In this document: positions 1-22,302 of the stretch, piece by piece
Numbering within the stretch: the first letter of the stretch is position 1
Layout: the number at the start of each line of letters is the position of its first letter
Virus record (IMG/VR): IMGVR_UViG_3300031841_005406
Location: 1-22,518 of that record
From: a virus
Reading direction: 5' to 3' (one strand)
Length of the DNA: 22,518 nt
The notes under the pieces: model-generated
Database searches by the model: none
Told to the model about the DNA's origin: nothing
What the model saw: only the letters and a program-made list of their open reading frames with translations
Position numbers and translations under genes: made by a program

Positions 1-358
1 CTATTGGAGCAGAGAACTGACTTTTTCTAGACGATCTACTATGGTATTTGTCTAGATAATCTACAAACATTTTCCATGAATGTTCCTGGGCCGGATTATT
101 TCTCCATCTCTCCATGATATCAGCTTTTGAACACCCAGAGACTTTTGCATGAAAATCCACCACATCTGTAGTATATTCATATTCTGGATCTTTTTCTATA
201 ACCTCCGGTTTAAAAGTTACATTAAAATCAGAATTGGGAATGATATCTAATTTAATCGGATCAACCATCACCGCAGCCAACTGAACTGGACTGCATACAG
301 AAGGATCAGACCCATCTGTTTCAAAATCGAATACACAAATTTTATTGTAATTTATCAT
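1..358 (-). CDS. DnaQ-type 3'-5' exonuclease (DEDD family), N-terminal part, runs off left edge
   Basis: The frame is open from an ATG at 358 to the left edge, so about 119 N-terminal residues are visible. Residues 8-16 read CVFDFETDG, the Exo I motif of DEDD exonucleases, with likely metal ligands D11 and E13. This is followed by a family-like beta strand (PVQLAAVMV) and a segment around DFHAKVSGCSKADI that resembles the HxxTGI region of DnaQ relatives. The likely role is 3'-5' proofreading during phage DNA replication, because the DNA polymerase III alpha half lies just upstream. Its ATG overlaps the TGA of the preceding 60-residue gene (ATGA), implying translational coupling. The Exo II and Exo III motifs lie outside or near the edge, so activity cannot be judged. 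A general RNase T or oligoribonuclease-like DEDD enzyme is the main alternative. Confidence 0.8.
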   Translation of the reverse strand, partial: MINYNKICVFDFETDGSDPSVCSPVQLAAVMVDPIKLDIIPNSDFNVTFKPEVIEKDPEYEYTTDVVDFHAKVSGCSKADIMERWRNNPAQEHSWKMFVDYLDKYHSRSSRKSQFSAPI

Positions 359-537
359 TGTTCCTCAACTACTGTAACTTCGCTAACAGGTATAATCATC
401 GTTTTTTGATTGGTGTCTGCTGCTAAAACAGCATTATTAACTTTACAGCAAGTAATTCTTTCATCTTTAATCTTGATATAGTCATTGCCTTCAAAACTAA
501 ATTTGGTACCTATTGCTATATCTACAAAACGTGGCAT
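355..537 (-). CDS. Small conserved phage-type protein of unknown function (60 aa)
   Basis: This encodes 60 residues, predicted mostly as beta strands. The N-terminal pattern (DIAIGTKFSFEGNDYIKIKDE) resembles a recurring class of very small phage proteins with an 'IGxxFxxxGxxYxKI' signature whose function I do not know. There is no signal peptide, membrane segment or metal motif. The start is well supported: AAAGGAGATT (551-542) lies upstream of the ATG at 537, inside the end of the polymerase gene. Its TGA overlaps the ATG of the exonuclease. Being sandwiched between polymerase and exonuclease suggests a part in replication, but that is inference from position only. Confidence 0.75.
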   Translation of the reverse strand: MPRFVDIAIGTKFSFEGNDYIKIKDERITCCKVNNAVLAADTNQKTMIIPVSEVTVVEEQ

Positions 538-538
538 A

Positions 539-2413
539 TTAATCTCCTTTTTCTAGTAGGTTTTGTATAGTCATAATTTTATCTAACATAGCTACACCGA
601 GAATATCAAACTTAATAATACCAATTGATTCTAAGTCTTGCATTTCCATGCCAGCAATCATCTGTTTGTTTTTAGAATCATATACCATAGGGCATATTTC
701 GCCAAGAGATTGTGAACTAATAGCAATACCGGCTGCATGTTTGGACTGATTAGACTTAACGCCCTCTAATCTTATAGCCTGCTCAAACCTTTTGGCAAGC
801 GGTCCTTGCAATTCGCCATTTTTATCTATAGAACACCATTCTTTGAGTTTATCCGCATTATTTTCAAGAGTCCATCTAATAATAGAGGCTTCCCCTGTTT
901 CATCTTTCATAGTCTGTAATTCGTCAGCTATTTTTGCTTCATCTGGTATATTTTTGGTAATCTTATTCATTTCCTCAAATGATATATTTCCATAAACCCT
1001 CAAAACATCTTTTAAAGCACCTCTACCTTTAATAGTGTTGAAAGTGATCATCTGAGATACCCTATCATCTCCGTAAGTGTCCTTGATATACTTGATAATA
1101 TTTTCTCTCTTATTGATAGGCACATCTACATCAATATCTGGCATAGAAATATGGTCCTCGGTATTTCTGCCAGCATTATAAAATCTATCAAACATTAAAT
1201 TGTATTGTATCGGATTAATATTGGTAATGCCTATGAGATAGGAAACTAAGCATCCAGCAGCACTACCTCTGCCTGGGCCGGGCAACCAGTTATTGGAACG
1301 AACATAGTCAACAATATCTCTAACAATCAGAAAGTAGCTTGACAGGTCAGCACCCTGCAACACATCTAATTCATATTTAATTCTATTAGCATATTCTTCA
1401 TGATTTTCTTTTGGCACTTGTTGAGCTATTTTATCTCTCCATCCATTTCTACATAATTGACGCAAATATTCTGCATCGTCATATCCTTCTGGACATGGAA
1501 AGGGTGGAAGATTTGGTTTGCTTAGAATATTGTATTCTTCACACATACTATCTACGAGATTAGTATTCTCTATCTCTTCATCAGTATGTAACGCATTAAT
1601 TTCTTCTTGAGATAATATGTGAAAATTATCAGAAGTAAAAAATGCTTCTAGACCAACTTCTTCGTTATTTATAAGTTTGCGATTAACTTCTGGGAATGTA
1701 GTTTTTAAATTATTACACAGTAAGACTCTTTGATCGACAGCATCATCTTTTCGGCAATAGTGAGCATCTGGAGTACAAACTACTTTAGTATTAGTTGACT
1801 TAGCTAGTTGTCTTATGCAGTCAGTTAGGCTAGATTGTATTTGTAGATTATCCTTATCCATTAATTGAGATTCAAGGAAAAAATTATCTTTACCGAATAT
1901 ATCCTTAAATTTTCCTACATATTCTGTACCTATATTTTTCCAGTCAGGAACTATTGTGTCATTTTCTACTAGCTTACTGGCTAGAGTCGAACCAAGATGG
2001 CCGCAAATACCTATAAGGTTACCATCTATCAATTCACCTAGGGTCTTTAAATTAAGTCTGGCCTTGTGATAATAATAATCGGGCCTATTAGATTCAGAAA
2101 CTATTTTTACAAGATTTTTCCAGCCCTTATAGTTTTTGGCTAAAACAAGCAAATGACTTAAAGATCTGTTAGATTTATCTTGTATTGATGGATCATCTTC
2201 ACATATGTAAAGTTCACATCCTAGAATTGGCTTAATCCCAGACTTTTTCATCTGAGTATAAAACTTGATAGCTCCAGCAATATTACCGTGATCAGTCAGG
2301 GCGCATGATCTAGCTCCTATTTCTTGGCACCTCTCTGCTATTTGAGTAGGCTTAGAAAGTCCGTCCAATAAACTGTACATACTATGTACATGCAAAGGTA
2401 TATATTTTTTCAT
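539..2413 (-). CDS. dnaE: DNA polymerase III alpha subunit (DnaE-type), N-terminal half: PHP and palm domains
   Basis: This is a replicative C-family DNA polymerase, but only its first half. The PHP domain spans about residues 1-290 and keeps likely metal ligands: H8 and H10 in HVH, D41 and H42 in TDHG, and D216/H218 in PDAHY. The polymerase palm follows with GPGRGSAAG at 379-387, PDIDVD at 425-430 (catalytic D428 and D430), the HAAG motif at 559-562, and KFDILG at 601-606 carrying the third catalytic aspartate, D603. The protein stops at residue 624, only 21 residues after D603, whereas family members run to about 1,000-1,200 residues. Fingers, helix-hairpin-helix, clamp-binding and OB parts are absent. 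The following gene is not the missing half in another frame. Its ATG overlaps the TAA of the methyltransferase gene (TAATG). The missing half should be encoded elsewhere in the phage. Confidence 0.93.
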   Translation of the reverse strand: MKKYIPLHVHSMYSLLDGLSKPTQIAERCQEIGARSCALTDHGNIAGAIKFYTQMKKSGIKPILGCELYICEDDPSIQDKSNRSLSHLLVLAKNYKGWKNLVKIVSESNRPDYYYHKARLNLKTLGELIDGNLIGICGHLGSTLASKLVENDTIVPDWKNIGTEYVGKFKDIFGKDNFFLESQLMDKDNLQIQSSLTDCIRQLAKSTNTKVVCTPDAHYCRKDDAVDQRVLLCNNLKTTFPEVNRKLINNEEVGLEAFFTSDNFHILSQEEINALHTDEEIENTNLVDSMCEEYNILSKPNLPPFPCPEGYDDAEYLRQLCRNGWRDKIAQQVPKENHEEYANRIKYELDVLQGADLSSYFLIVRDIVDYVRSNNWLPGPGRGSAAGCLVSYLIGITNINPIQYNLMFDRFYNAGRNTEDHISMPDIDVDVPINKRENIIKYIKDTYGDDRVSQMITFNTIKGRGALKDVLRVYGNISFEEMNKITKNIPDEAKIADELQTMKDETGEASIIRWTLENNADKLKEWCSIDKNGELQGPLAKRFEQAIRLEGVKSNQSKHAAGIAISSQSLGEICPMVYDSKNKQMIAGMEMQDLESIGIIKFDILGVAMLDKIMTIQNLLEKGD

Positions 2414-12700: not shown

Positions 12701-14899
12701 TTAGATTAGACATGCGCCACCAGCACAACTAATTTCCTCTATTCCTACAGTATTGTCCTCAGTCTCTAATAGTTGTGTATAATCGACCTTGGTAAAACTA
12801 TCGTATAGATCAGTATAGATTTTCCAATTATATACGTCTTTCATACAATAAGTTAAACGTTTAATATCGTCATTAAAGTATTTTTTGGCAAACCTCCTCA
12901 TCTTTATGGCAAATAATTTTTTATCATCACTATCTTTATCTGTTTCTTGATTAAGAGTCATATAGTCACAAGCAGCCCACAAATTATTATCAAAAGCATT
13001 AAGACCTAGTTCAATCAGGCCGGAGCACCATAATGAAGCATCTCCATATTCTTTAGCGATCTCTCTGCTAGTATAAACAGTAGTAAATGGTGCTTGTGGA
13101 TAATCTTTATCTCCGCTCTGTGGGATCAAGCTAATACCAGCAAAGAACTTACGATTATCATAAATGTATTTTGTTACAGCTTCCCACTCATCTGGTTGGA
13201 CTGTTACTGTGTTGCTAACATTATGACTTAAAAAGTCTTGTGTGCATAGTGATCTATTCTTACCAGACTGTACCCAATTTTTTTGAGTATCTTTAACAAC
13301 ACTAAGCATTTCTACTGCTGGTAATTGATTTTTTAGTTTTGAACCATCTGGGACTTCAATAGGAAACTTTACAACCTCATCTGTGTTGTTAGCAGACCAT
13401 GCTGACTTTTCGCAGGCTTGTGGGTTATAACTTTTGAAGTATTGATAGGGTGGCTCAAGAATATTAGCTTGTACATGTCTAATATATCTTTTAGCATGAT
13501 GGGGATGGATACCGGAGCTTGTGCCAAGCATACTGCTGCTAGTGCCTTCTGGTTTTAAGCATGTGACTCTAGCTGCCTGGTTAATGTTAATCTTTTTTGA
13601 CAGTTCTTTATTGGTTTCTACGGCAATCTTGGCTCCAGCTTTTAGTACCTTTTCTGTCAGAACTAATTCATGCTTTTCCATAATGCCAGTTAACGAAACA
13701 CCAAGCAATGCTTCACGATCAAAAATAGCTTTGCTAACATCTCCTAGATAATCAAGATCAGTAAAACCAGCCTGAAGAGTGCCGATAATAGCAGCAGCCT
13801 TGCATCTTTCGTAGAAGTCTTCTTCGTCTGCTACAGAAGAACAGTTGATAGTTGACAGATTACAGCCTTGCCAGCCAGATTTACCCGTCTTCTCATCAAC
13901 AGGCCACATTCCAACCTCAACGCAAGGATTGAAGGTCATTTCTGTTGAATCACTCCAGATAAATCCTGGCTCACCAAACTCTTTGACGCTTTCCATAAGA
14001 TTTTTAAAATCTTCATAAGACGTATCATCTTTTAATAGCAAAGCGGAATTATTACTTCTAGCTCTTTGTGGATTTTCAACATACCAATTGCCCGTTTTGG
14101 CTTTAGCCATCTCATCATCATTTGCACTAAATAAAGCTAACGATGCACTTCTGCGAACGCCACCAGATAATACAGCATCGCTGCTGTGCATAATAATGTC
14201 ATAAGCATCAATAGGTCGGAGTTTTTTTTGTTCATTTTCAACACACTTATCCAATAATTCACGAATTTTTTCTAGACCACTTTGTAACGGTTCAAAGCCT
14301 GGGGCCTTGCCAACACCAGAAGATAATTGTGCGCCTTTTTCACGAATATTAGAATAATCGAATACAATATACTTGTCTTTATATTCTGCAAATCGTGATT
14401 CGCTAGGTTTGTTAAAATATGAGCTTAATAACACACCCAATGAATCGGCCCAACCTTCAATACTATCTTCTATCTTATATTTTACACCTTTACGCTTGTC
14501 TTTCTTTTCTGATGTAAGATTTGGCAACTTAGATACATGATGTTTTTGTACGCTAAAGCCAGTACCACTACCACAGAGCAGCAACCAGAAACATTCTTGG
14601 AAAAATCTTAAACGGTCACAATATGAACTGGTGCAGTTATAGATCTTTGCGTGACGCTTTAGGATCGGCTCTCCGCCGAATTGTAATGCTCTTTGACTTC
14701 CGAGTACCTTCTTTTTAAACATAAGGTCATATGCCCAATCAATGTCTTCAGATATATTTTTATCCGAATAGTATGTATGCATCATATTCCTAACACGATC
14801 GACGGCTTCTTTCCAAGTTTCTCTTCTGTTCTCGCTCTCTATCCAACGAGCATACTTGCTAACAAATGTGTAATTCTGTAGTTCATTTAATGCCGACAT
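12701..14899 (-). CDS. nrdJ: Adenosylcobalamin-dependent (class II) ribonucleoside-triphosphate reductase
   Basis: This monomeric enzyme makes dNTPs from NTPs using a coenzyme-B12 radical and needs no beta subunit or iron. The 732-residue length matches the Lactobacillus RTPR type (about 739). Catalytic residues are visible. C326 and E328 in FNPCVE are the thiyl-radical cysteine and its glutamate. C89 (YNCTS) and probably C346 (QGCNLST) are the redox pair, and C725/C730 at the C-terminus (SCAGGACLI) are the re-reducing cysteines. Other signatures are SGTGFSV at 111-117 and GGVRRSASLAL at 246-256. AAGGAG lies five bases upstream of the ATG. It is preceded by the only large non-coding gap in the window, so it may have its own promoter or control site. 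Confidence 0.95.
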   Translation of the reverse strand: MSALNELQNYTFVSKYARWIESENRRETWKEAVDRVRNMMHTYYSDKNISEDIDWAYDLMFKKKVLGSQRALQFGGEPILKRHAKIYNCTSSYCDRLRFFQECFWLLLCGSGTGFSVQKHHVSKLPNLTSEKKDKRKGVKYKIEDSIEGWADSLGVLLSSYFNKPSESRFAEYKDKYIVFDYSNIREKGAQLSSGVGKAPGFEPLQSGLEKIRELLDKCVENEQKKLRPIDAYDIIMHSSDAVLSGGVRRSASLALFSANDDEMAKAKTGNWYVENPQRARSNNSALLLKDDTSYEDFKNLMESVKEFGEPGFIWSDSTEMTFNPCVEVGMWPVDEKTGKSGWQGCNLSTINCSSVADEEDFYERCKAAAIIGTLQAGFTDLDYLGDVSKAIFDREALLGVSLTGIMEKHELVLTEKVLKAGAKIAVETNKELSKKININQAARVTCLKPEGTSSSMLGTSSGIHPHHAKRYIRHVQANILEPPYQYFKSYNPQACEKSAWSANNTDEVVKFPIEVPDGSKLKNQLPAVEMLSVVKDTQKNWVQSGKNRSLCTQDFLSHNVSNTVTVQPDEWEAVTKYIYDNRKFFAGISLIPQSGDKDYPQAPFTTVYTSREIAKEYGDASLWCSGLIELGLNAFDNNLWAACDYMTLNQETDKDSDDKKLFAIKMRRFAKKYFNDDIKRLTYCMKDVYNWKIYTDLYDSFTKVDYTQLLETEDNTVGIEEISCAGGACLI

Positions 14900-15554: not shown

Positions 15555-16349
15555 CTATAAGAACATCAGTTTTTTTTGCAAATCGAACACTGGCTCACAA
15601 AATATAGCAGGCCAATTCTCTATTGTTACATCATCATTAAGAAAAACTTCCAAGTCAATTTTTTTAACATAGTCCATAAATTGTAGTGGATTTACAAAAT
15701 TATTTTGTATGTTATTGTCGGATATTTTCATTGTGGTCATATTTTCAAGCATTTTTGGATCAAAATCCACTTCAAGAAAGTTACATATTGAAAGTATCGT
15801 CTCTTCTGTTTGAGTGCATAATTCTTCATAATTAATTGTGATTACGTTCGGTTTATTAATTAGTAATTCATATATTAACTTTGTTGACATCATATAGTAT
15901 GTTATATATTGATAAAAGAAAGCTTGTGCTTGTGGATCAAATAAGATTTTTGGAATAGATCTTTCTTGTTGTATATTCGCTTCTTTATAGATTTCTATTA
16001 ATTTGAGTTGATTGATTTTTGAGATATATTGTTTGATGGCATTTTTTCTATACAAGAATACAACTTTAATATCATCATTTGAATATAGATATTTAGTTAC
16101 TTCTGGATAATAATTATGCTGGTTAGGATACTTGAATTTAAAGCCAACATTTTTTCCATTAGGAATATGGTAATGTTTTAGTATTTCATATAGAGAATTT
16201 TTAGGATGATAAGCTTGTTTATTCTTGATACGTTCATCTGGAGTAGCTAGAAGTTCAAAGAAACATTTAATATCTGGATGTTTATTCAGAATATGGCATA
16301 GCATTGTTGAGCCAGTACGCTCATAAAAAGATATAAAAAACTTTTTCAT
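15555..16349 (-). CDS. Sulfotransferase
   Basis: The 264-residue protein is a PAPS-dependent sulfotransferase of the Stf0/carbohydrate type. The N-terminal ERTGSTMLCHILNKHPDI (about 10-27) is the 5'-phosphosulfate binding loop. A second region VVFLYRKNAIKQYISKIN (about 95-112) resembles the 3'-phosphate binding motif (R...S). The fold is cytoplasmic, with no signal or membrane segment. It is the last gene of the glycan cassette, overlaps the large glycosyltransferase (ATGA at 16349), and could add sulfate to the sugar or to a host or phage surface glycan. The coding sequence is very rich in Asn, Ile and Lys, apparently more AT-rich than the replication genes, a possible sign of separate acquisition. 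Confidence 0.83.
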   Translation of the reverse strand: MKKFFISFYERTGSTMLCHILNKHPDIKCFFELLATPDERIKNKQAYHPKNSLYEILKHYHIPNGKNVGFKFKYPNQHNYYPEVTKYLYSNDDIKVVFLYRKNAIKQYISKINQLKLIEIYKEANIQQERSIPKILFDPQAQAFFYQYITYYMMSTKLIYELLINKPNVITINYEELCTQTEETILSICNFLEVDFDPKMLENMTTMKISDNNIQNNFVNPLQFMDYVKKIDLEVFLNDDVTIENWPAIFCEPVFDLQKKLMFL

Positions 16350-18553
16350 ATTAATGCTACTTTTTTATTATGGGTTATTAGATATCCTATATATCTTTCA
16401 ATAGCATGATCAAACATATAGTCTGGTATGCCGATTTTATGATAGCGGTCTTGTAATTCAAAGAAGTTTTTAGGTTGGTATTTTAAAAATATGTCTCTAG
16501 CATCCTGGTCTATTTTTTTATATATTGGATGATTTTTTCTATCTATATAGCATTTATCAAAAAGGTCTTTATTGGCCATGCATTGTTGCCAGAATTTATC
16601 ATCAGTATTAATATCTGTTAAATTGCTTTTGATATATTCTATGTTGTTCTTAAGATCATTTAGATTTTTCATTTGTGTCATAAAACATGTACCAGAAATA
16701 TATTTAAACGAAATATTTGCCAGATGCTGCATGAAATTGTGTTCTAGGAATATCTCTGTATTCATATCATTTTCATCGCAATTGGAATAATAGTTTTTGG
16801 AAACAACTGTATCAAATTTATCATAGTCTAAAACATAAAGTATCTTATATAGTTCTTCTCTCCATAAAAAATTGGTTTTATTATGTATATACGTAATGTA
16901 TTCGTCATCTGGAATTGAAAATTTATCTACTAAATCTAGCAGGCCTCCTATATCAAATCCCTTATTCTCTCTTTTTAGTATATGTATTCTTTCTTTAAAT
17001 TCATGATCAAACTTTTGAGCTATGATATCTATATTGTCCAAATTTGATACCGCTAAGTAAATATTCTCAATATTCTGGTCTAGAATTAATTTATTGTGTA
17101 TCAAGTTAACAAAATATTGTATCTCAGCATCATTTTTATGATAGTAAGAAATTAGTAGATTATTTTTGTGTTTCTGTAGGTTGGAGAATTTGAATCTCGG
17201 ATAACCAATGAAGCTATCTAATATGTAGTTCTTATTTTTAGATGTCTGATTTTTTATCTTGTTAAGGGGCATTTTCTTCAGTGCTTTTGTTATTTTTTTG
17301 GGATCGTTATTATGATCAGTAATTACTGTTACATTTTCTAGGTTATCAATATCGTGCTTATATTTAATATTTTCATCTAGTAAAATTATCTTATTATTCA
17401 TTAATAGATTTTCTAATATCACTATAGGACAAGGATCTCTTTTACTAGTAAGCAAGAAATAGTCTATGTTATTAAAATGATCAAAGGGATCAGCTGTTTC
17501 TTCTATACATATTAAATTTGGCGGTGTGTTATCGGATACTATGTTGCCTCCGATCCAAATAAAATCATATGATGGATTGAGCTTAGAAAGAGCTACAAAT
17601 AGTTCTGGATTCTTTCTCCTGCAGTTAGTGCCGCACATTCCTATTTGAATTCTTTTTGTCTGTTTAATATCTGTGTTGATAGATAATATTTTCTCAGATC
17701 TACTATGTGATAAAAATTCTGGACACAGCAAAACTTTTTTATGTCTATAAACACCAAGATCTTCGGCAATCTGCTTTGCAACAAATATTGTACTATATGA
17801 CTGATCAATTATATTCTTAAACTTATTTTGTTCGTCAGTTTTTAGAGATCTGTATATGTCCTCTTTACATTCGTGAAAATGAAAGATAGTCTTATGTAAA
17901 TATGTTGTGAAATTATCTATGTGTTTAAATATGGGACTTAGTGAATTAGAATAGACAATATTGATAGAAGCAATATTATCTAATATATTTTTTAGTTTAA
18001 GTGGGTCATTAAAATGATAATATCTTTTGATGTTCTTATTTATATCATAATATTCATTCGGTACACAGTCTACAAAAATCAAATTTTTATTGTATCTATA
18101 TAGCCAATTAGCGAAGTCCTGCAAAAACATTGGAGCGCCGGTTAGACTAGATTGATGATTGATTAATACTGTATAGTTTTCATATCTAGATTTATTCTCT
18201 TGTGTGGGCAGTCTTAATAGATTACGAATCTGCTCGTAGTTAAACGAGGATCTAAATTGACGATTTTCTCTATGTCCATATGATCTATAGTGCATTTCTA
18301 GCTTCGATTTATCATTACGAAAATGATGATCTAAATCAGGATTTAATATGCCATAGATTCTATAATCAAAATCTTCTGGTAGTTTATCTAAAAAATGATC
18401 AAGTCGATAGATCCTGCCTTCATCTATACCATGTTTTAGGTAGTGTGTTTCTGCTTGTTGCTGATTGCATAAACCATTTTTTGTAAGATCATGATTAAGC
18501 TGAAGATAAATTTTCCAGTCAAAATCTGGTGGTATACTACTTTCTTTTTTCAT
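16346..18553 (-). CDS. Multidomain glycosyltransferase: N-terminal repeats, GT4-like domain, RgpF-like C-terminus
   Basis: This 735-residue protein has three parts. Two tandem repeats of a motif often attached to surface-glycan enzymes lie at about 11-50 (DFDWKIYLQLNHDL...HYLKHGIDEGR) and 61-100 (DFDYRIYGILNPDL...HYRSYGHRENR). A GT-B glycosyltransferase region (about 125-440) follows, with VLINHQSSLTGAP near 129-141, GMCGTNCRRKNPELF at 305-319, and RDPCPIVILENLL at 372-384 (the family-4 donor-site acidic motif). The rest (about 465-735) matches the RgpF rhamnan-synthesis family, with LLISYYHKND, KRENKGFDIGGLLD at 527-540 and ITYIHNKTN at 553-561. It may build a rhamnose-like polymer or side chain from the sugar nucleotide made by its neighbours. 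Acceptor and linkage are unknown. Confidence 0.85.
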   Translation of the reverse strand: MKKESSIPPDFDWKIYLQLNHDLTKNGLCNQQQAETHYLKHGIDEGRIYRLDHFLDKLPEDFDYRIYGILNPDLDHHFRNDKSKLEMHYRSYGHRENRQFRSSFNYEQIRNLLRLPTQENKSRYENYTVLINHQSSLTGAPMFLQDFANWLYRYNKNLIFVDCVPNEYYDINKNIKRYYHFNDPLKLKNILDNIASINIVYSNSLSPIFKHIDNFTTYLHKTIFHFHECKEDIYRSLKTDEQNKFKNIIDQSYSTIFVAKQIAEDLGVYRHKKVLLCPEFLSHSRSEKILSINTDIKQTKRIQIGMCGTNCRRKNPELFVALSKLNPSYDFIWIGGNIVSDNTPPNLICIEETADPFDHFNNIDYFLLTSKRDPCPIVILENLLMNNKIILLDENIKYKHDIDNLENVTVITDHNNDPKKITKALKKMPLNKIKNQTSKNKNYILDSFIGYPRFKFSNLQKHKNNLLISYYHKNDAEIQYFVNLIHNKLILDQNIENIYLAVSNLDNIDIIAQKFDHEFKERIHILKRENKGFDIGGLLDLVDKFSIPDDEYITYIHNKTNFLWREELYKILYVLDYDKFDTVVSKNYYSNCDENDMNTEIFLEHNFMQHLANISFKYISGTCFMTQMKNLNDLKNNIEYIKSNLTDINTDDKFWQQCMANKDLFDKCYIDRKNHPIYKKIDQDARDIFLKYQPKNFFELQDRYHKIGIPDYMFDHAIERYIGYLITHNKKVALI

Positions 18554-19038
18554 TAATTACAAATATTTTGATCTTTTGTTGATATAATCTCAGGTTGCAT
18601 TGGCCAATTGATGTCGTAATTTTTCCAACAATATGCCTCATCTAAATTTTTATCATATTCTTGATCTTGTTGGTACACAAGTACGCTATCTTCCAAAGCA
18701 AGAAACGCATGGCCACAATACGGAGGAATATATAGACTATTGAGTACTTGCTCGCTAAGACACAAACCAAAATATTGATTATGTGTTTTGCTATCAGGTC
18801 TTAAGTCAACACAAACATCGTACACTGTTCCTTTTACGCATGTTACTAGTTTTGCGTATGGAGTCCTATGTATGCCTCTTAGAACTCCTTTTTTAGAAAA
18901 ACTGTAATTAGACTGAGCATTTTTAAGCTGTGGCAATTTAGAAACCTTAAATATTTCCGAAAAAATTCCCCTATCGTCTTTAAATTGTTCTGGTTCGATC
19001 CAGACGCAATCAGATATATGTGTAGTATTTATCTGCAT
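18553..19038 (-). CDS. RmlC-type dTDP-4-keto-6-deoxyhexose 3,5-epimerase
   Basis: The 161-residue protein has the RmlC cupin signatures. EQFKDDRGIFSEIF lies at 17-30, KGVLRGIHRTP near 50-60 with the likely catalytic His, VYDVCVDLRPDSKTH near 72-86, and IPPYCGHAFLALED near 104-117. It would epimerise the 4-keto-6-deoxy sugar produced by the RmlB-type dehydratase two genes upstream. It is shorter than bacterial RmlC (about 180 residues) and has a compact C-terminus. Its product may therefore be an epimer at one centre only (FdtA/RmlC relatives differ), which sequence alone does not settle. AGGT precedes the ATG. Its stop overlaps the next start (TAATG). Confidence 0.87.
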   Translation of the reverse strand: MQINTTHISDCVWIEPEQFKDDRGIFSEIFKVSKLPQLKNAQSNYSFSKKGVLRGIHRTPYAKLVTCVKGTVYDVCVDLRPDSKTHNQYFGLCLSEQVLNSLYIPPYCGHAFLALEDSVLVYQQDQEYDKNLDEAYCWKNYDINWPMQPEIISTKDQNICN

Positions 19039-19046
19039 TTAATTAC

Positions 19047-19907
19047 CTATATTTCGACTACTAGAGTATTCATTATGTGGTAATGACATAATCCTCCTAA
19101 ATTTTTAAATACAAAATTCTTATGACTACCATCATGAACATGATGTTTATGTACTATGTTCAAAAGCTTGGTTAGGTCTTCTGGAGATAGAAGTTGTTGT
19201 TTTTTGATATCCTGAGACAGTATTGTTTTAGCTAAGTATGCTTCGCAAGCACAACCCTCTCCTTCAGATAAACCAGCATCTTGACCTTGCAGGACATCCC
19301 AAGGATAACATGCAGGATTTTCCTGTTTAGCGAGATCATACCTTTCTTTCATATTTAGTATATCTTTATGTTCTGGCAACCATTTTGGTAAATTATTTCT
19401 GTAGATATAGTGATTAGTCTGTGGATAAAAATATGTTTGATCTAGTATAGCGGCGTGAGCCTCTTCCAATGTATACTTGTCAAATATCGCATATCCAATA
19501 TTATTTACATAAAAGAAATCACATGTTTCATCTATGTCTATGTCTAGTATGGTTTCATTTGCGAGTACATCCATAGAAAATTTCCATACATATTCTACAT
19601 TTGGATCACCTTTGCAATATTCATAAATTTGTCTGTCTAGATCCATTGCTCCAAATGCAAGTCCAAGATTAGTCTCCGCAAACACTAATATGGGAACAGG
19701 CCTAAAGTCTTCCTGTTTAAATCTATCAATCAAAAAATCGCAATATTTACGATCGCCATTTGCACTAAAAAGAATATGAGTAAAGTTTTCTAGCCAGTGC
19801 ATATTTGCTCGTAAATAGCCTAGAGTTTTGTCTACATTCTTAGATTCTTCTATTGTTAAGACAAAAGCCGCAATAGAATCAGAAATTATATTTTTTAGTT
19901 TCATCAT
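19047..19907 (-). CDS. Probable glycosyltransferase (GT-A-like), family uncertain
   Basis: The 286-residue protein resembles GT-A enzymes: an early strand (AAFVLTIEESKNVDKTLGYL), a middle ETNLGLAFGAMDLDR, and YVWKFSMDVLANETILDIDID, where acidic residues could serve as a metal-binding DxD-like motif. The C-terminal part is rich in His and Cys (CACEAY, HKHHVHDGSH), which could bind metal but is not a known motif. A second ATG three bases downstream (19904) is equally possible. It overlaps the RmlB-type gene by 29 bases and lies between it and the epimerase gene. The exact family is unrecognised; a phage-specific sugar transferase is the best guess. Confidence 0.65.
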   Translation of the reverse strand: MMKLKNIISDSIAAFVLTIEESKNVDKTLGYLRANMHWLENFTHILFSANGDRKYCDFLIDRFKQEDFRPVPILVFAETNLGLAFGAMDLDRQIYEYCKGDPNVEYVWKFSMDVLANETILDIDIDETCDFFYVNNIGYAIFDKYTLEEAHAAILDQTYFYPQTNHYIYRNNLPKWLPEHKDILNMKERYDLAKQENPACYPWDVLQGQDAGLSEGEGCACEAYLAKTILSQDIKKQQLLSPEDLTKLLNIVHKHHVHDGSHKNFVFKNLGGLCHYHIMNTLVVEI

Positions 19908-20886
19908 TTATCATCCAGTCTATTGTTGTTTTAAGTGATGTTTGAAAATCTATTGGCTGTTTCCAACCCATATCTCTTAGTTTTGACCCATCTAAACTAT
20001 ATCTTCTATCATGTCCTGGTCTAGCTTTATCGCAATCGACATATTGTATGCGAGCTTCTTTGTTCATAAGTCTAGCTATCTCTTTAACTAGATCATCATT
20101 GTTCATTTCACGATCACCTACTACATTATAATGCTCTCCAGGCTTACCATGATTTAGTAAAAACAGAGTAGCATTTGCAGCATTACGGGCATGTAGCCAA
20201 TGTCTTTGTCCAACATATAAAACCCTATTATTGTCATCCATCTTGGCATGAATCTGTACAATCTTATCTTCATTAATTAGTCCTATGGCCTTAGCTACTA
20301 ATTTTTCTTTGTGTTGTCTAGCTCCATATAGATTCATCGTATATGTGTGAATAATTGGTAGATTATATGTATTCCAATATGCAATACCTGCTGCTCCTTG
20401 ACCAGCCTTACTGGCGCTATAAGGATTACTAGGTCGCCACCTATCATCTTCTTTAAAGTCATAACCATCTGGAGCGGGACCGAAAACTTCGTCTGTTAAG
20501 TAGTTAATAAATAAGGCATTTGGATTGGTTTGTCTGTACCATTCTAATAAATTAACAGTACCCATCACATTGTCTTCAAAAAATTGTTTAGGATGTTCTA
20601 TGCTTCTAGTAACATGACTGTTTGCTGCTATATGAGCCACGTAATCAACTGCACCGATTGCTTCTATCGTATGAGGAGGTAGTTCAAATTTTAGATCATG
20701 AAAAATCAATTTAACTCTGTCTGCATGTTCTCTTACATGTAAGCTGTTAAGCAGCCTTTCTAAATCTCCAACATAAGTTAATCTACATAAGCATTTGATA
20801 TCCCAATCAGTATTTAGAAGCAACTCTTCAACAAAATGAGACCCTAAGAAGCCTGCGGCTCCTGTTACTAGAATAGACTTTGGCAT
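19879..20886 (-). CDS. RmlB-type NAD-dependent dTDP-glucose 4,6-dehydratase
   Basis: The enzyme removes water from a nucleotide-hexose to give the 4-keto-6-deoxy sugar, the step before the RmlC-type epimerase. It has 335 residues, close to RmlB (about 350). The NAD-binding loop GAAGFLG is at 9-15. AANSHVTRSIEHP at 87-99 matches the substrate-site stretch of RmlB. TDE at 131-133 are the RmlB-type active-site acids, and Y156/K160 (NPYSASK) complete the catalytic triad. The TDE triplet favours RmlB over other epimerases and GDP-mannose dehydratase. The ATG overlaps the upstream stop (TAATG) and is preceded by AAGGAA. The rest of a rhamnose pathway (RmlA, RmlD) is not in the window, so the host may supply it. 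Confidence 0.9.
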   Translation of the reverse strand: MPKSILVTGAAGFLGSHFVEELLLNTDWDIKCLCRLTYVGDLERLLNSLHVREHADRVKLIFHDLKFELPPHTIEAIGAVDYVAHIAANSHVTRSIEHPKQFFEDNVMGTVNLLEWYRQTNPNALFINYLTDEVFGPAPDGYDFKEDDRWRPSNPYSASKAGQGAAGIAYWNTYNLPIIHTYTMNLYGARQHKEKLVAKAIGLINEDKIVQIHAKMDDNNRVLYVGQRHWLHARNAANATLFLLNHGKPGEHYNVVGDREMNNDDLVKEIARLMNKEARIQYVDCDKARPGHDRRYSLDGSKLRDMGWKQPIDFQTSLKTTIDWMINDETKKYNF

Positions 20887-21665
20887 TATATGTTCCTTAG
20901 TAATTTTGAATTATTTATTGGGTTATGTTGTGCTAGCTGACCCCATTTGTATTTAAAATATAAATGACACTGTTTTTCGTCTTCTTGTGATTTAGCAATT
21001 TTTTCAGGAGTCTTATGAGTAACTGATACAAAATGGTAAAACATACATTGGTAGGTTCTTAGCATTTTAAGACCATTCATTTCACACTTCATAAAAAATT
21101 CCCAATCTGCAACCATCCCAGGCAATCCAGGATAATCGCTATCAAATCCTCCACATCTTAAATAGTTTAATTTATTGATTAGGATAGGGAATGTTGATCC
21201 TGTATATTCGATTATATTTTTTCTGTTCTCAAGTTCATATTTCCAAAATTTTTCTAGATCAAAGACACTAGGATCTCTACCAAGATCGCAAATGTGAAAT
21301 TGTCTGAACATACTATTATAAGGTTCTATTTGATTTGGCGTAACCACGCTTTCGTCTAAGTTTAGTTTAGACAATATAGTATCCCAGTTTTTTGGAAAAA
21401 CATTATCATCATTAACTATAAGAATATTATTGTACTGTGCATTATACACACCTATATTTGTTGCTTTACAAGTACCAACATTTTTTTCTAAAACAACTGC
21501 CTTCACATATGGTATATATTTACTAAGAGTATCTTTATTACTATCTATATCTCCATCTACTACAACAAGGATTTCATTGTTTGATTCTTGTCCTTCAGTA
21601 GCAGACTTTAGGCACAAATCTAAAGCACTAGGTGAATTTAGTGTGGGAATAATGACACTAATCAT
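20886..21665 (-). CDS. Family-2 glycosyltransferase
   Basis: The 259-residue protein has the GT2 nucleotide-binding opening (ISVIIPTLNSPSALDLCLKS, 2-21), a VVVDGDID strand, KNVGTCKATNIGV near 61-73, and the metal-binding acids in VNDDNVFPKNWD near 84-95. The later WEFFMKCEMNGLKMLR segment fits the acceptor-site ED/WD region. There is no membrane helix, so it is a soluble transferase. It overlaps the oxygenase upstream by eight bases and shares TAATG with the RmlB-type gene. It is likely to transfer the sugar made by the cassette, but donor and acceptor are not readable. Confidence 0.88.
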   Translation of the reverse strand: MISVIIPTLNSPSALDLCLKSATEGQESNNEILVVVDGDIDSNKDTLSKYIPYVKAVVLEKNVGTCKATNIGVYNAQYNNILIVNDDNVFPKNWDTILSKLNLDESVVTPNQIEPYNSMFRQFHICDLGRDPSVFDLEKFWKYELENRKNIIEYTGSTFPILINKLNYLRCGGFDSDYPGLPGMVADWEFFMKCEMNGLKMLRTYQCMFYHFVSVTHKTPEKIAKSQEDEKQCHLYFKYKWGQLAQHNPINNSKLLRNI

Positions 21666-22302
21666 AAAGCTCGTAATATTCTCCTATTTTAAATTTCTTC
21701 TTCAGATTGATAGATCCATGCTCGCTAGGTAAATAGTTTTTGTATTCTATTACTCTGAAATCTATACTGATTCTGGTCTTGCCAGTTTCATTAAGTTTAT
21801 TCCCATGTAGTAAATTTGGGCCATCCCATTGAATAAATTCTCCATATTTGCAGTTCATTGGAGCAAAGTCTTTTTTATCTTCTTCAGACTCTACCCATAT
21901 AGTATTGGTATCGAAGGCATCTGTAAAGGGCAAGAAGAAATTAAGTTCTTTGACTTGTTCGGCCCATTCTCCGTCTCTATACCATTTATCTTTATGATAC
22001 TCACCTACTGCGATATTGTTTGGATAACATATTCTGAATGTAGGCTTCTTTTGTACAACTATTTTGTTTGAATAAAGTGGTCTAACATGTTCACTAATAA
22101 ACCTTTGATATTTATCTAAAAAGGAACTGTTTGTCATCCATTCATAAAAAAGTTTGTGATGTATTGTTGATTGATCGCTTTCTCTTTTTAATATTTCTAT
22201 ATCACTACTAATATTTGCAAGATTCTGTACATTAAATATCTTTGCCAATTCATTTGCAAAATTATACTTGGATACATCATATGTATTTTTAGATATATAC
22301 AT
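21658..22302 (-). CDS. StrG-like Fe(II)/2-oxoglutarate-type oxygenase
   Basis: The 214-residue protein resembles StrG-type proteins (named from streptomycin biosynthesis). The likely iron triad is H103 and D105 (YHKDKWY) and H166 (LLHGNKLNETGKTRISIDFRV). R177 or R183 is a candidate 2-oxoglutarate ligand, and NNIAVGEYHKDK precedes the first pair. The double-stranded beta-helix core spans about residues 85-185. It could hydroxylate a sugar, nucleotide sugar or peptide. Location beside glycosyltransferases and the RmlB-type dehydratase favours a sugar. It overlaps the preceding gene by 14 bases. Its exact substrate is unknown, and a phytanoyl-dioxygenase relative is the alternative. Confidence 0.8.
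   Translation of the reverse strand: MYISKNTYDVSKYNFANELAKIFNVQNLANISSDIEILKRESDQSTIHHKLFYEWMTNSSFLDKYQRFISEHVRPLYSNKIVVQKKPTFRICYPNNIAVGEYHKDKWYRDGEWAEQVKELNFFLPFTDAFDTNTIWVESEEDKKDFAPMNCKYGEFIQWDGPNLLHGNKLNETGKTRISIDFRVIEYKNYLPSEHGSINLKKKFKIGEYYELYD

What the first reader, a model, noticed from the sequence alone, without database searches (positions are those of the whole stretch)
539..2413. Naturally split DNA polymerase III alpha, cut at the palm/fingers junction
The protein carries PHP and palm with all three catalytic aspartates (D428, D430, D603) and stops 21 residues after the third. Fingers, clamp-binding and OB parts are missing. The next genes (a 60-residue protein and a DnaQ-type exonuclease) are intact and in other frames, so a simple frameshift of one long gene is unlikely. 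There is no intein-like ending, unlike the split cyanobacterial DnaE. A working enzyme would need a separately encoded second half that assembles without splicing. A two-piece replicative polymerase divided within the catalytic domain would be unusual.
Basis: partly seen in the sequence, partly recalled or inferred. Interest (0 to 1): 0.82.

Follow-up and report, generated by a model that had tools for sequence, protein, structure and literature searches.

The report
Phage DNA polymerase in two genes
This virus fragment carries the front half of a bacterial-type replicative DNA polymerase; in over a hundred related viruses the back half is a separate gene two genes further on, so these phages very probably copy their DNA with a polymerase assembled from two proteins, though this has not been tested in the laboratory.

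Summary
The gene (minus strand, 2413..539, 624 aa) encodes PHP + palm + thumb of a DnaE-type PolIII alpha and stops 21 residues after the third catalytic Asp. The second half is not in the window because this 22.5-kb virus contig ends inside the downstream DnaQ gene. In IMG/VR relatives (140 distinct N-halves) none is fused. Of 125 with more than 1.5 kb downstream, 121 carry a ~540-aa fingers-HhH-OB gene, usually ~870 nt away: N-half, ~60-aa protein, ~230-aa DnaQ exonuclease, C-half, SSB. Sixteen long records each hold exactly one palm gene and one fingers gene. Both halves are under strong purifying selection; the usual junctions carry no intein and leave no room for an intron. Best reading: an intein-free two-subunit phage replicase, assembled non-covalently at the palm/fingers boundary (assembly inferred). 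Broken phage polIII-alpha genes are already known: Microbacterium cluster EF phages have two such genes, jumbo phages a minimal split version, and phiT1 is cut at the same place. So this is a new variant of a known kind: a fixed palm/fingers split in an abundant uncultured clade, with a conserved Cys-containing extension on the new N-terminus. Side findings: inteins and split inteins within the halves; Planctomycetota-type genes in some members.

The parts
539..2413 (-). N-half of DnaE-type DNA polymerase III alpha (PHP + palm + thumb), 624 aa
   Evidence: TIGR00594 profile 1-573 of 1022 matched by residues 4-622
1865..2395 (-). PHP domain (residues 7-183)
   Evidence: PF02811 E 4.9e-36
596..1471 (-). 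palm/thumb region (residues 315-606)
   Evidence: PF07733 E 7.8e-73, full profile length
1130..1138 (-). catalytic D426 and D428 (E. coli D401, D403) in the motif PDIDVD
   Evidence: invariant in 46 aligned sequences
605..607 (-). catalytic D603 (E. coli D555), 21 residues before the C-terminus
355..537 (-). conserved small protein S, 60 aa, invariant CC pair, predicted small beta-barrel; lies between the halves in 116 of 121 relatives
2..358 (-). DnaQ-like 3'-5' exonuclease, cut by the contig end (119 of ~230 aa); in relatives the C-half of the polymerase usually starts at or overlapping its stop codon
3000..7222 (-). replication neighbourhood upstream: DnaB helicase, Toprim primase, dNMP kinase, PD-(D/E)XK nuclease

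Best explanation
The gene is the first of two that together encode one phage-borne, DnaE-type replicative polymerase. The N-half supplies PHP, thumb and palm with the catalytic Asp triad. The C-half, ~0.9 kb downstream in relatives and just off this contig, supplies fingers, HhH and OB domains. The two are translated separately from one gene cluster (N-half, ~60-aa protein S, DnaQ-type proofreader, C-half, SSB) and, as I infer, associate non-covalently across the natural palm/fingers boundary into one active site that neither half could form alone. A ~28-residue Cys-containing beta-strand segment added at the new N-terminus of the C-half is a candidate docking element. The window lacks the C-half only because the contig ends inside the exonuclease gene. 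Shown: the break, its position, the conserved gene order, both halves kept under purifying selection, no fused form in the clade. Inferred: assembly, activity, use as the phage's replicase.
For: Same end point in 140 distinct relatives, 0 fused; C-half found in 121/125 with >1.5 kb downstream, median gap 868 nt. Exactly one PF17657 and one PF07733 match in each of 16 long records up to 230 kb, so no second complete polIII alpha gene in them. The C-half aligns to E. coli DnaE 588-897 (2.8e-51) with a weak OB match 945-1055, has PF17657 + HHH_6 + OB (OB just under its cut-off), and its AlphaFold model (mean pLDDT 86.7) hits only C-family polymerase chains at E<=0.001. All catalytic Asps invariant. 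dN/dS mostly ~0.03-0.12 in both halves. Separate genes: median intergenic distances +1, -8 and -4 nt, SD-like motif before 117/135 S starts against 12% of random positions. No Rfam intron; no intein at the usual junctions. C-halves carry a conserved extra N-terminal segment with CxC (119/128).
Against: No biochemical evidence and no predicted complex (tools could not fold two chains). The window's own C-half has not been seen. Four of 125 loci show no C-half before their contig ends, although relatives of that subgroup carry it several kb away. No bacterial-type beta clamp found in 22 records; the T4-type clamp search had no positive control. Records are incomplete, so another replicase of a different family cannot be excluded.
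Confidence: 0.82

Rival explanations
1. The two halves are joined before use: by RNA splicing, translational bypass, or a trans-splicing intein, giving one ordinary polymerase chain.
For: Inteins, split inteins and an intron-like interruption do occur inside these genes in some relatives.
Against: Those elements sit elsewhere (FNK^S and RPG^C in the C-half, before MPDID in the N-half). At the palm/fingers break the next gene starts a median of 1 nt after the N-half stop and the C-half overlaps the exonuclease stop by a median of 4 nt; no intein sequence at the usual ends; no Rfam intron match in the window, L006 or L028. A joined product would also need to skip two conserved genes. Rfam also missed the intron-like breaks in L104 and L113, so its silence alone is weak.
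Confidence: 0.06
2. The gene is a decaying or truncated polymerase, or an assembly error.
For: In the window alone the second half is missing.
Against: 140 distinct relatives share the same end point, all catalytic residues are invariant, dN/dS mostly ~0.03-0.12.
Confidence: 0.02
3. The two genes are not halves of a polymerase any more: the N-half works alone (for example as a PHP nuclease) and the C-half as a DNA-binding protein, while the host or another polymerase copies the genome.
For: The PHP metal-ligand motifs look complete in the N-half (residues, assignment from my own knowledge). Some jumbo phages carry a minimal split PolIII alpha next to a family B polymerase (PMC7824862).
Against: The palm Asp motifs and the finger motifs are kept, and the halves stay linked in one cluster with a proofreader and SSB.
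Confidence: 0.08

Closest known systems
Rossellomorea phage phiT1 PolIII alpha genes gp20 + gp18 (PV767480)
   Same: DnaE cut at the same place (E. coli 574/584), small gene between the halves, no intein
   Different: 49-aa intervening protein without clear likeness to S, no exonuclease between, no added segment on the C-half; one shared origin is not rejected (p-AU 0.205) but the tree places it among fused polymerases
Microbacterium cluster EF-type phages (Krampus) and Gordonia phage Sienna, Rhodococcus phage ChewyVIII
   Same: two genes for PolIII alpha in one cluster; noted for Microbacterium cluster EF in PMC7302621
   Different: in the three phages mapped here the cut is between PHP and palm (E. 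coli ~271-275 / 287-316), so the polymerase core stays in one chain
Split minimal PolIII alpha of group 2.2 jumbo phages (PMC7824862)
   Same: catalytic module divided into separate proteins, proposed to reassemble
   Different: according to that paper: minimal, in distantly located genes, beside a family B polymerase; here a near full-length DnaE in one cluster
Bacillus phage KLEB27-3
   Same: DnaE in two genes
   Different: cut at E. coli 612/619 with an HNH endonuclease gene between, as in a homing-endonuclease break
Cyanobacterial split DnaE (Ssp/Npu)
   Same: DnaE in two genes
   Different: joined by a split intein at another site (own knowledge); no intein at this break

Membership tests
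C-family DNA polymerase (DnaE-type PolIII alpha) | palm with three catalytic Asp | tested here: met
   D426, D428, D603 invariant; PF07733 complete
C-family DNA polymerase (DnaE-type PolIII alpha) | N-terminal PHP domain | tested here: met
   PF02811 E 4.9e-36
C-family DNA polymerase (DnaE-type PolIII alpha) | fingers, HhH and OB domains | tested here: met
   met in relatives as a separate gene; off the contig in the window
C-family DNA polymerase (DnaE-type PolIII alpha) | one continuous polypeptide (usual, not strictly defining) | tested here: not met
   0 fused ORFs among 140 distinct N-halves
C-family DNA polymerase (DnaE-type PolIII alpha) | binding to a beta clamp | tested here: inconclusive
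   no PF00712 in 22 records; a host clamp could be used; no clear QxxLF-type motif seen by eye
Intein-split DnaE | intein N- and C-fragments at the break | tested here: not met
   N-half ends 0-12 residues past the aligned region; usual C-half starts carry no intein. Split inteins occur elsewhere in L060, L073, L080
PolC | exonuclease inserted within PHP, PolC domain order | tested here: not met
   TIGR00594 489 bits against PolC models ~110 bits; exonuclease is a separate gene

The most novel reading that the evidence does not exclude
An obligate multi-subunit replicative polymerase: N- and C-halves plus the conserved 60-aa S protein form one enzyme, with the Cys-containing segment at the new N-terminus of the C-half (CxC and a third Cys) and the invariant CC of S acting as a lineage-specific docking or metal-binding joint that replaces the lost peptide bond.
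Probability: 0.15. Interest if true: 0.75.

Novelty: new variant of a known kind. Interest (0 to 1): 0.56.

Why it matters
Replicative polymerases are normally one chain whose palm and fingers must move together. A clade with hundreds of contigs in public metagenomes that has kept them as two proteins, apparently through deep divergence, would show that this hinge can be a protein-protein interface, and gives natural parts for a split polymerase. It also makes testable whether gene breaks left by mobile elements can become fixed subunits.

Tried and rejected
Sequencing error or frameshift: rejected. Intron at the junction: Rfam found none in the window, L006 or L028. Fold of protein S: confident model but no PDB match below E 1e-3, so no function claimed. 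Common origin of the phiT1 split: unresolved. Bacterial genomes: only 3 close matches, in MAG contigs labelled as three unrelated groups, probably mis-binned viral contigs. Clamp: PF00712 absent, PF02916 uninformative. Literature: Kazlauskas/Venclovas 2011 and Dassa 2009 not held; no paper found on this clade.

Full report
What is in the window. The window is a 22.5-kb virus record, with its main genes on the minus strand. The gene at 2413..539 encodes 624 aa: PHP at residues 7-183 and the complete PolIII alpha NTPase/palm family at 315-606. It aligns to E. coli DnaE 5-565. The protein stops 21 residues after D603. Next come a 60-aa gene (537..355) and a DnaQ-like exonuclease (358..2) that is cut by the contig end after 119 residues. 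Upstream lie a methyltransferase, a PD-(D/E)XK nuclease, dNMP kinase, Toprim primase and DnaB helicase.

The second half. The N-half ends at the same point in every locus that reaches that far. Over 140 distinct N-halves there is no fused ORF. Of 125 with more than 1.5 kb downstream, 121 have a C-half; S and the exonuclease were both recognised between the halves in 116 of them, with a median gap of 868 nt. The four exceptions belong to a subgroup in which extra genes are inserted and the contig ends; a relative (L037) has the C-half 3.5 kb away. Sixteen long records (57-231 kb) hold exactly one fingers match and one palm match each. In the window the C-half would start roughly 0.3 kb beyond the contig end (inferred from exonuclease length).

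What the C-half is. It has the PolIII finger family, HhH and an OB fold, aligns to E. coli 588-897 and weakly to 945-1055, and its predicted structure (mean pLDDT 86.7) matches PolIII alpha chains from Thermus, M. tuberculosis and E. coli, plus PolC more weakly. N-half and C-half thus cover DnaE from PHP to OB with the cut at the palm/fingers boundary. Compared with uncut polymerases and phiT1, which have 51-56 residues between the KFD and FQ motifs, this clade has 74-84. The surplus is mainly a segment at the start of the C-half with a CxC motif (119/128) followed by a third conserved Cys.

How it probably works. Both halves evolve under strong purifying selection; dN/dS is mostly ~0.03-0.12. 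The genes abut or overlap (median +1, -8, -4 nt), and an SD-like motif precedes 117/135 S starts, 47/140 N starts and 46/128 C starts, against 86/705 random positions. This fits separate, partly coupled translation. No room remains for an intron at the usual junctions; Rfam finds none in the window, L006 or L028, although it also missed intron-like breaks elsewhere. No intein is present at the usual ends. I infer non-covalent assembly. Function of S is unknown: a confident small beta-barrel model without a significant structural match.

Comparison with known cases. Mapping on E. coli DnaE: phiT1 is cut at 574/584, the same place; KLEB27-3 at 612/619 with an HNH gene; Sienna, ChewyVIII, Krampus and BpsS-140 between PHP and palm; Jayan at 401, inside the PDIDTD motif, which looks like an intron; MVC_VPHSA1 in several pieces. 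Hydra, 019DV002, BpsS-36, MTATph1, Cyrano, DAC20 and others are uncut. The literature notes two PolIII alpha genes in Microbacterium cluster EF (PMC7302621) and a split minimal PolIII alpha in jumbo phages (PMC7824862). The window's clade is one well-supported branch (100/100) in trees of joined halves; whether phiT1 shares its split by descent is not resolved (p-AU 0.205). Hence: a new variant of a known kind.

Limits. No wet-lab data, no two-chain model, no complete genome; the host is unknown. DUF1501/DUF1559 genes in a few members hint at Planctomycetota (the taxonomic meaning of these families is from my own knowledge). The coverage of the literature is limited to the open-licence library; two likely relevant papers were not held.

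Noticed in passing
L060:15967-18847, L073:12330-15340, L080:12730-15674: The C-half itself is cut by a split intein at FNK^S, with an endonuclease gene between the parts (DUF559/Vsr-like in L060; LAGLIDADG in L073, and a similar protein in L080): a 'fractured gene' and a polymerase in three genes.
   Followed up: partly
L023:12726-15089, L168:8732-11128: Contiguous intein in the C-half at RPG^C; an HNH endonuclease is weakly detected in the L023 one.
   Followed up: partly
L113:1942-4932: N-half interrupted just before MPDIDID by a LAGLIDADG ORF, intron-like, no Rfam match; the neighbouring PD-(D/E)XK gene (L113:2-1942) holds an intein-like insert with LAGLIDADG.
   Followed up: partly
L060:12725-15077; L037:13175-14245; L053:13193-14068: L060 carries DUF1501 and DUF1559 genes between exonuclease and C-half; L037 and L053 carry DUF1559-like ORFs there (by sequence likeness). 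These families are typical of Planctomycetota: a host hint. DUF1559 found in 2 of 22 records searched.
   Followed up: partly
L104:3980-7384: Bacillus phage Jayan polymerase is annotated as two genes but is cut inside P^DIDTD with extra residues on the first ORF, which suggests an unannotated intron; Rfam found none.
   Followed up: partly
window 15555-22302, minus strand: Block of sugar genes in a phage: sulfotransferase, dTDP-sugar epimerase, GDP-mannose dehydratase-like, glycosyltransferase-like proteins.
   Followed up: no
window 12701-14899, minus strand: 732-aa ribonucleotide reductase (phrog_367, 1.4e-107) with the insertion domain of the B12-dependent class.
   Followed up: no
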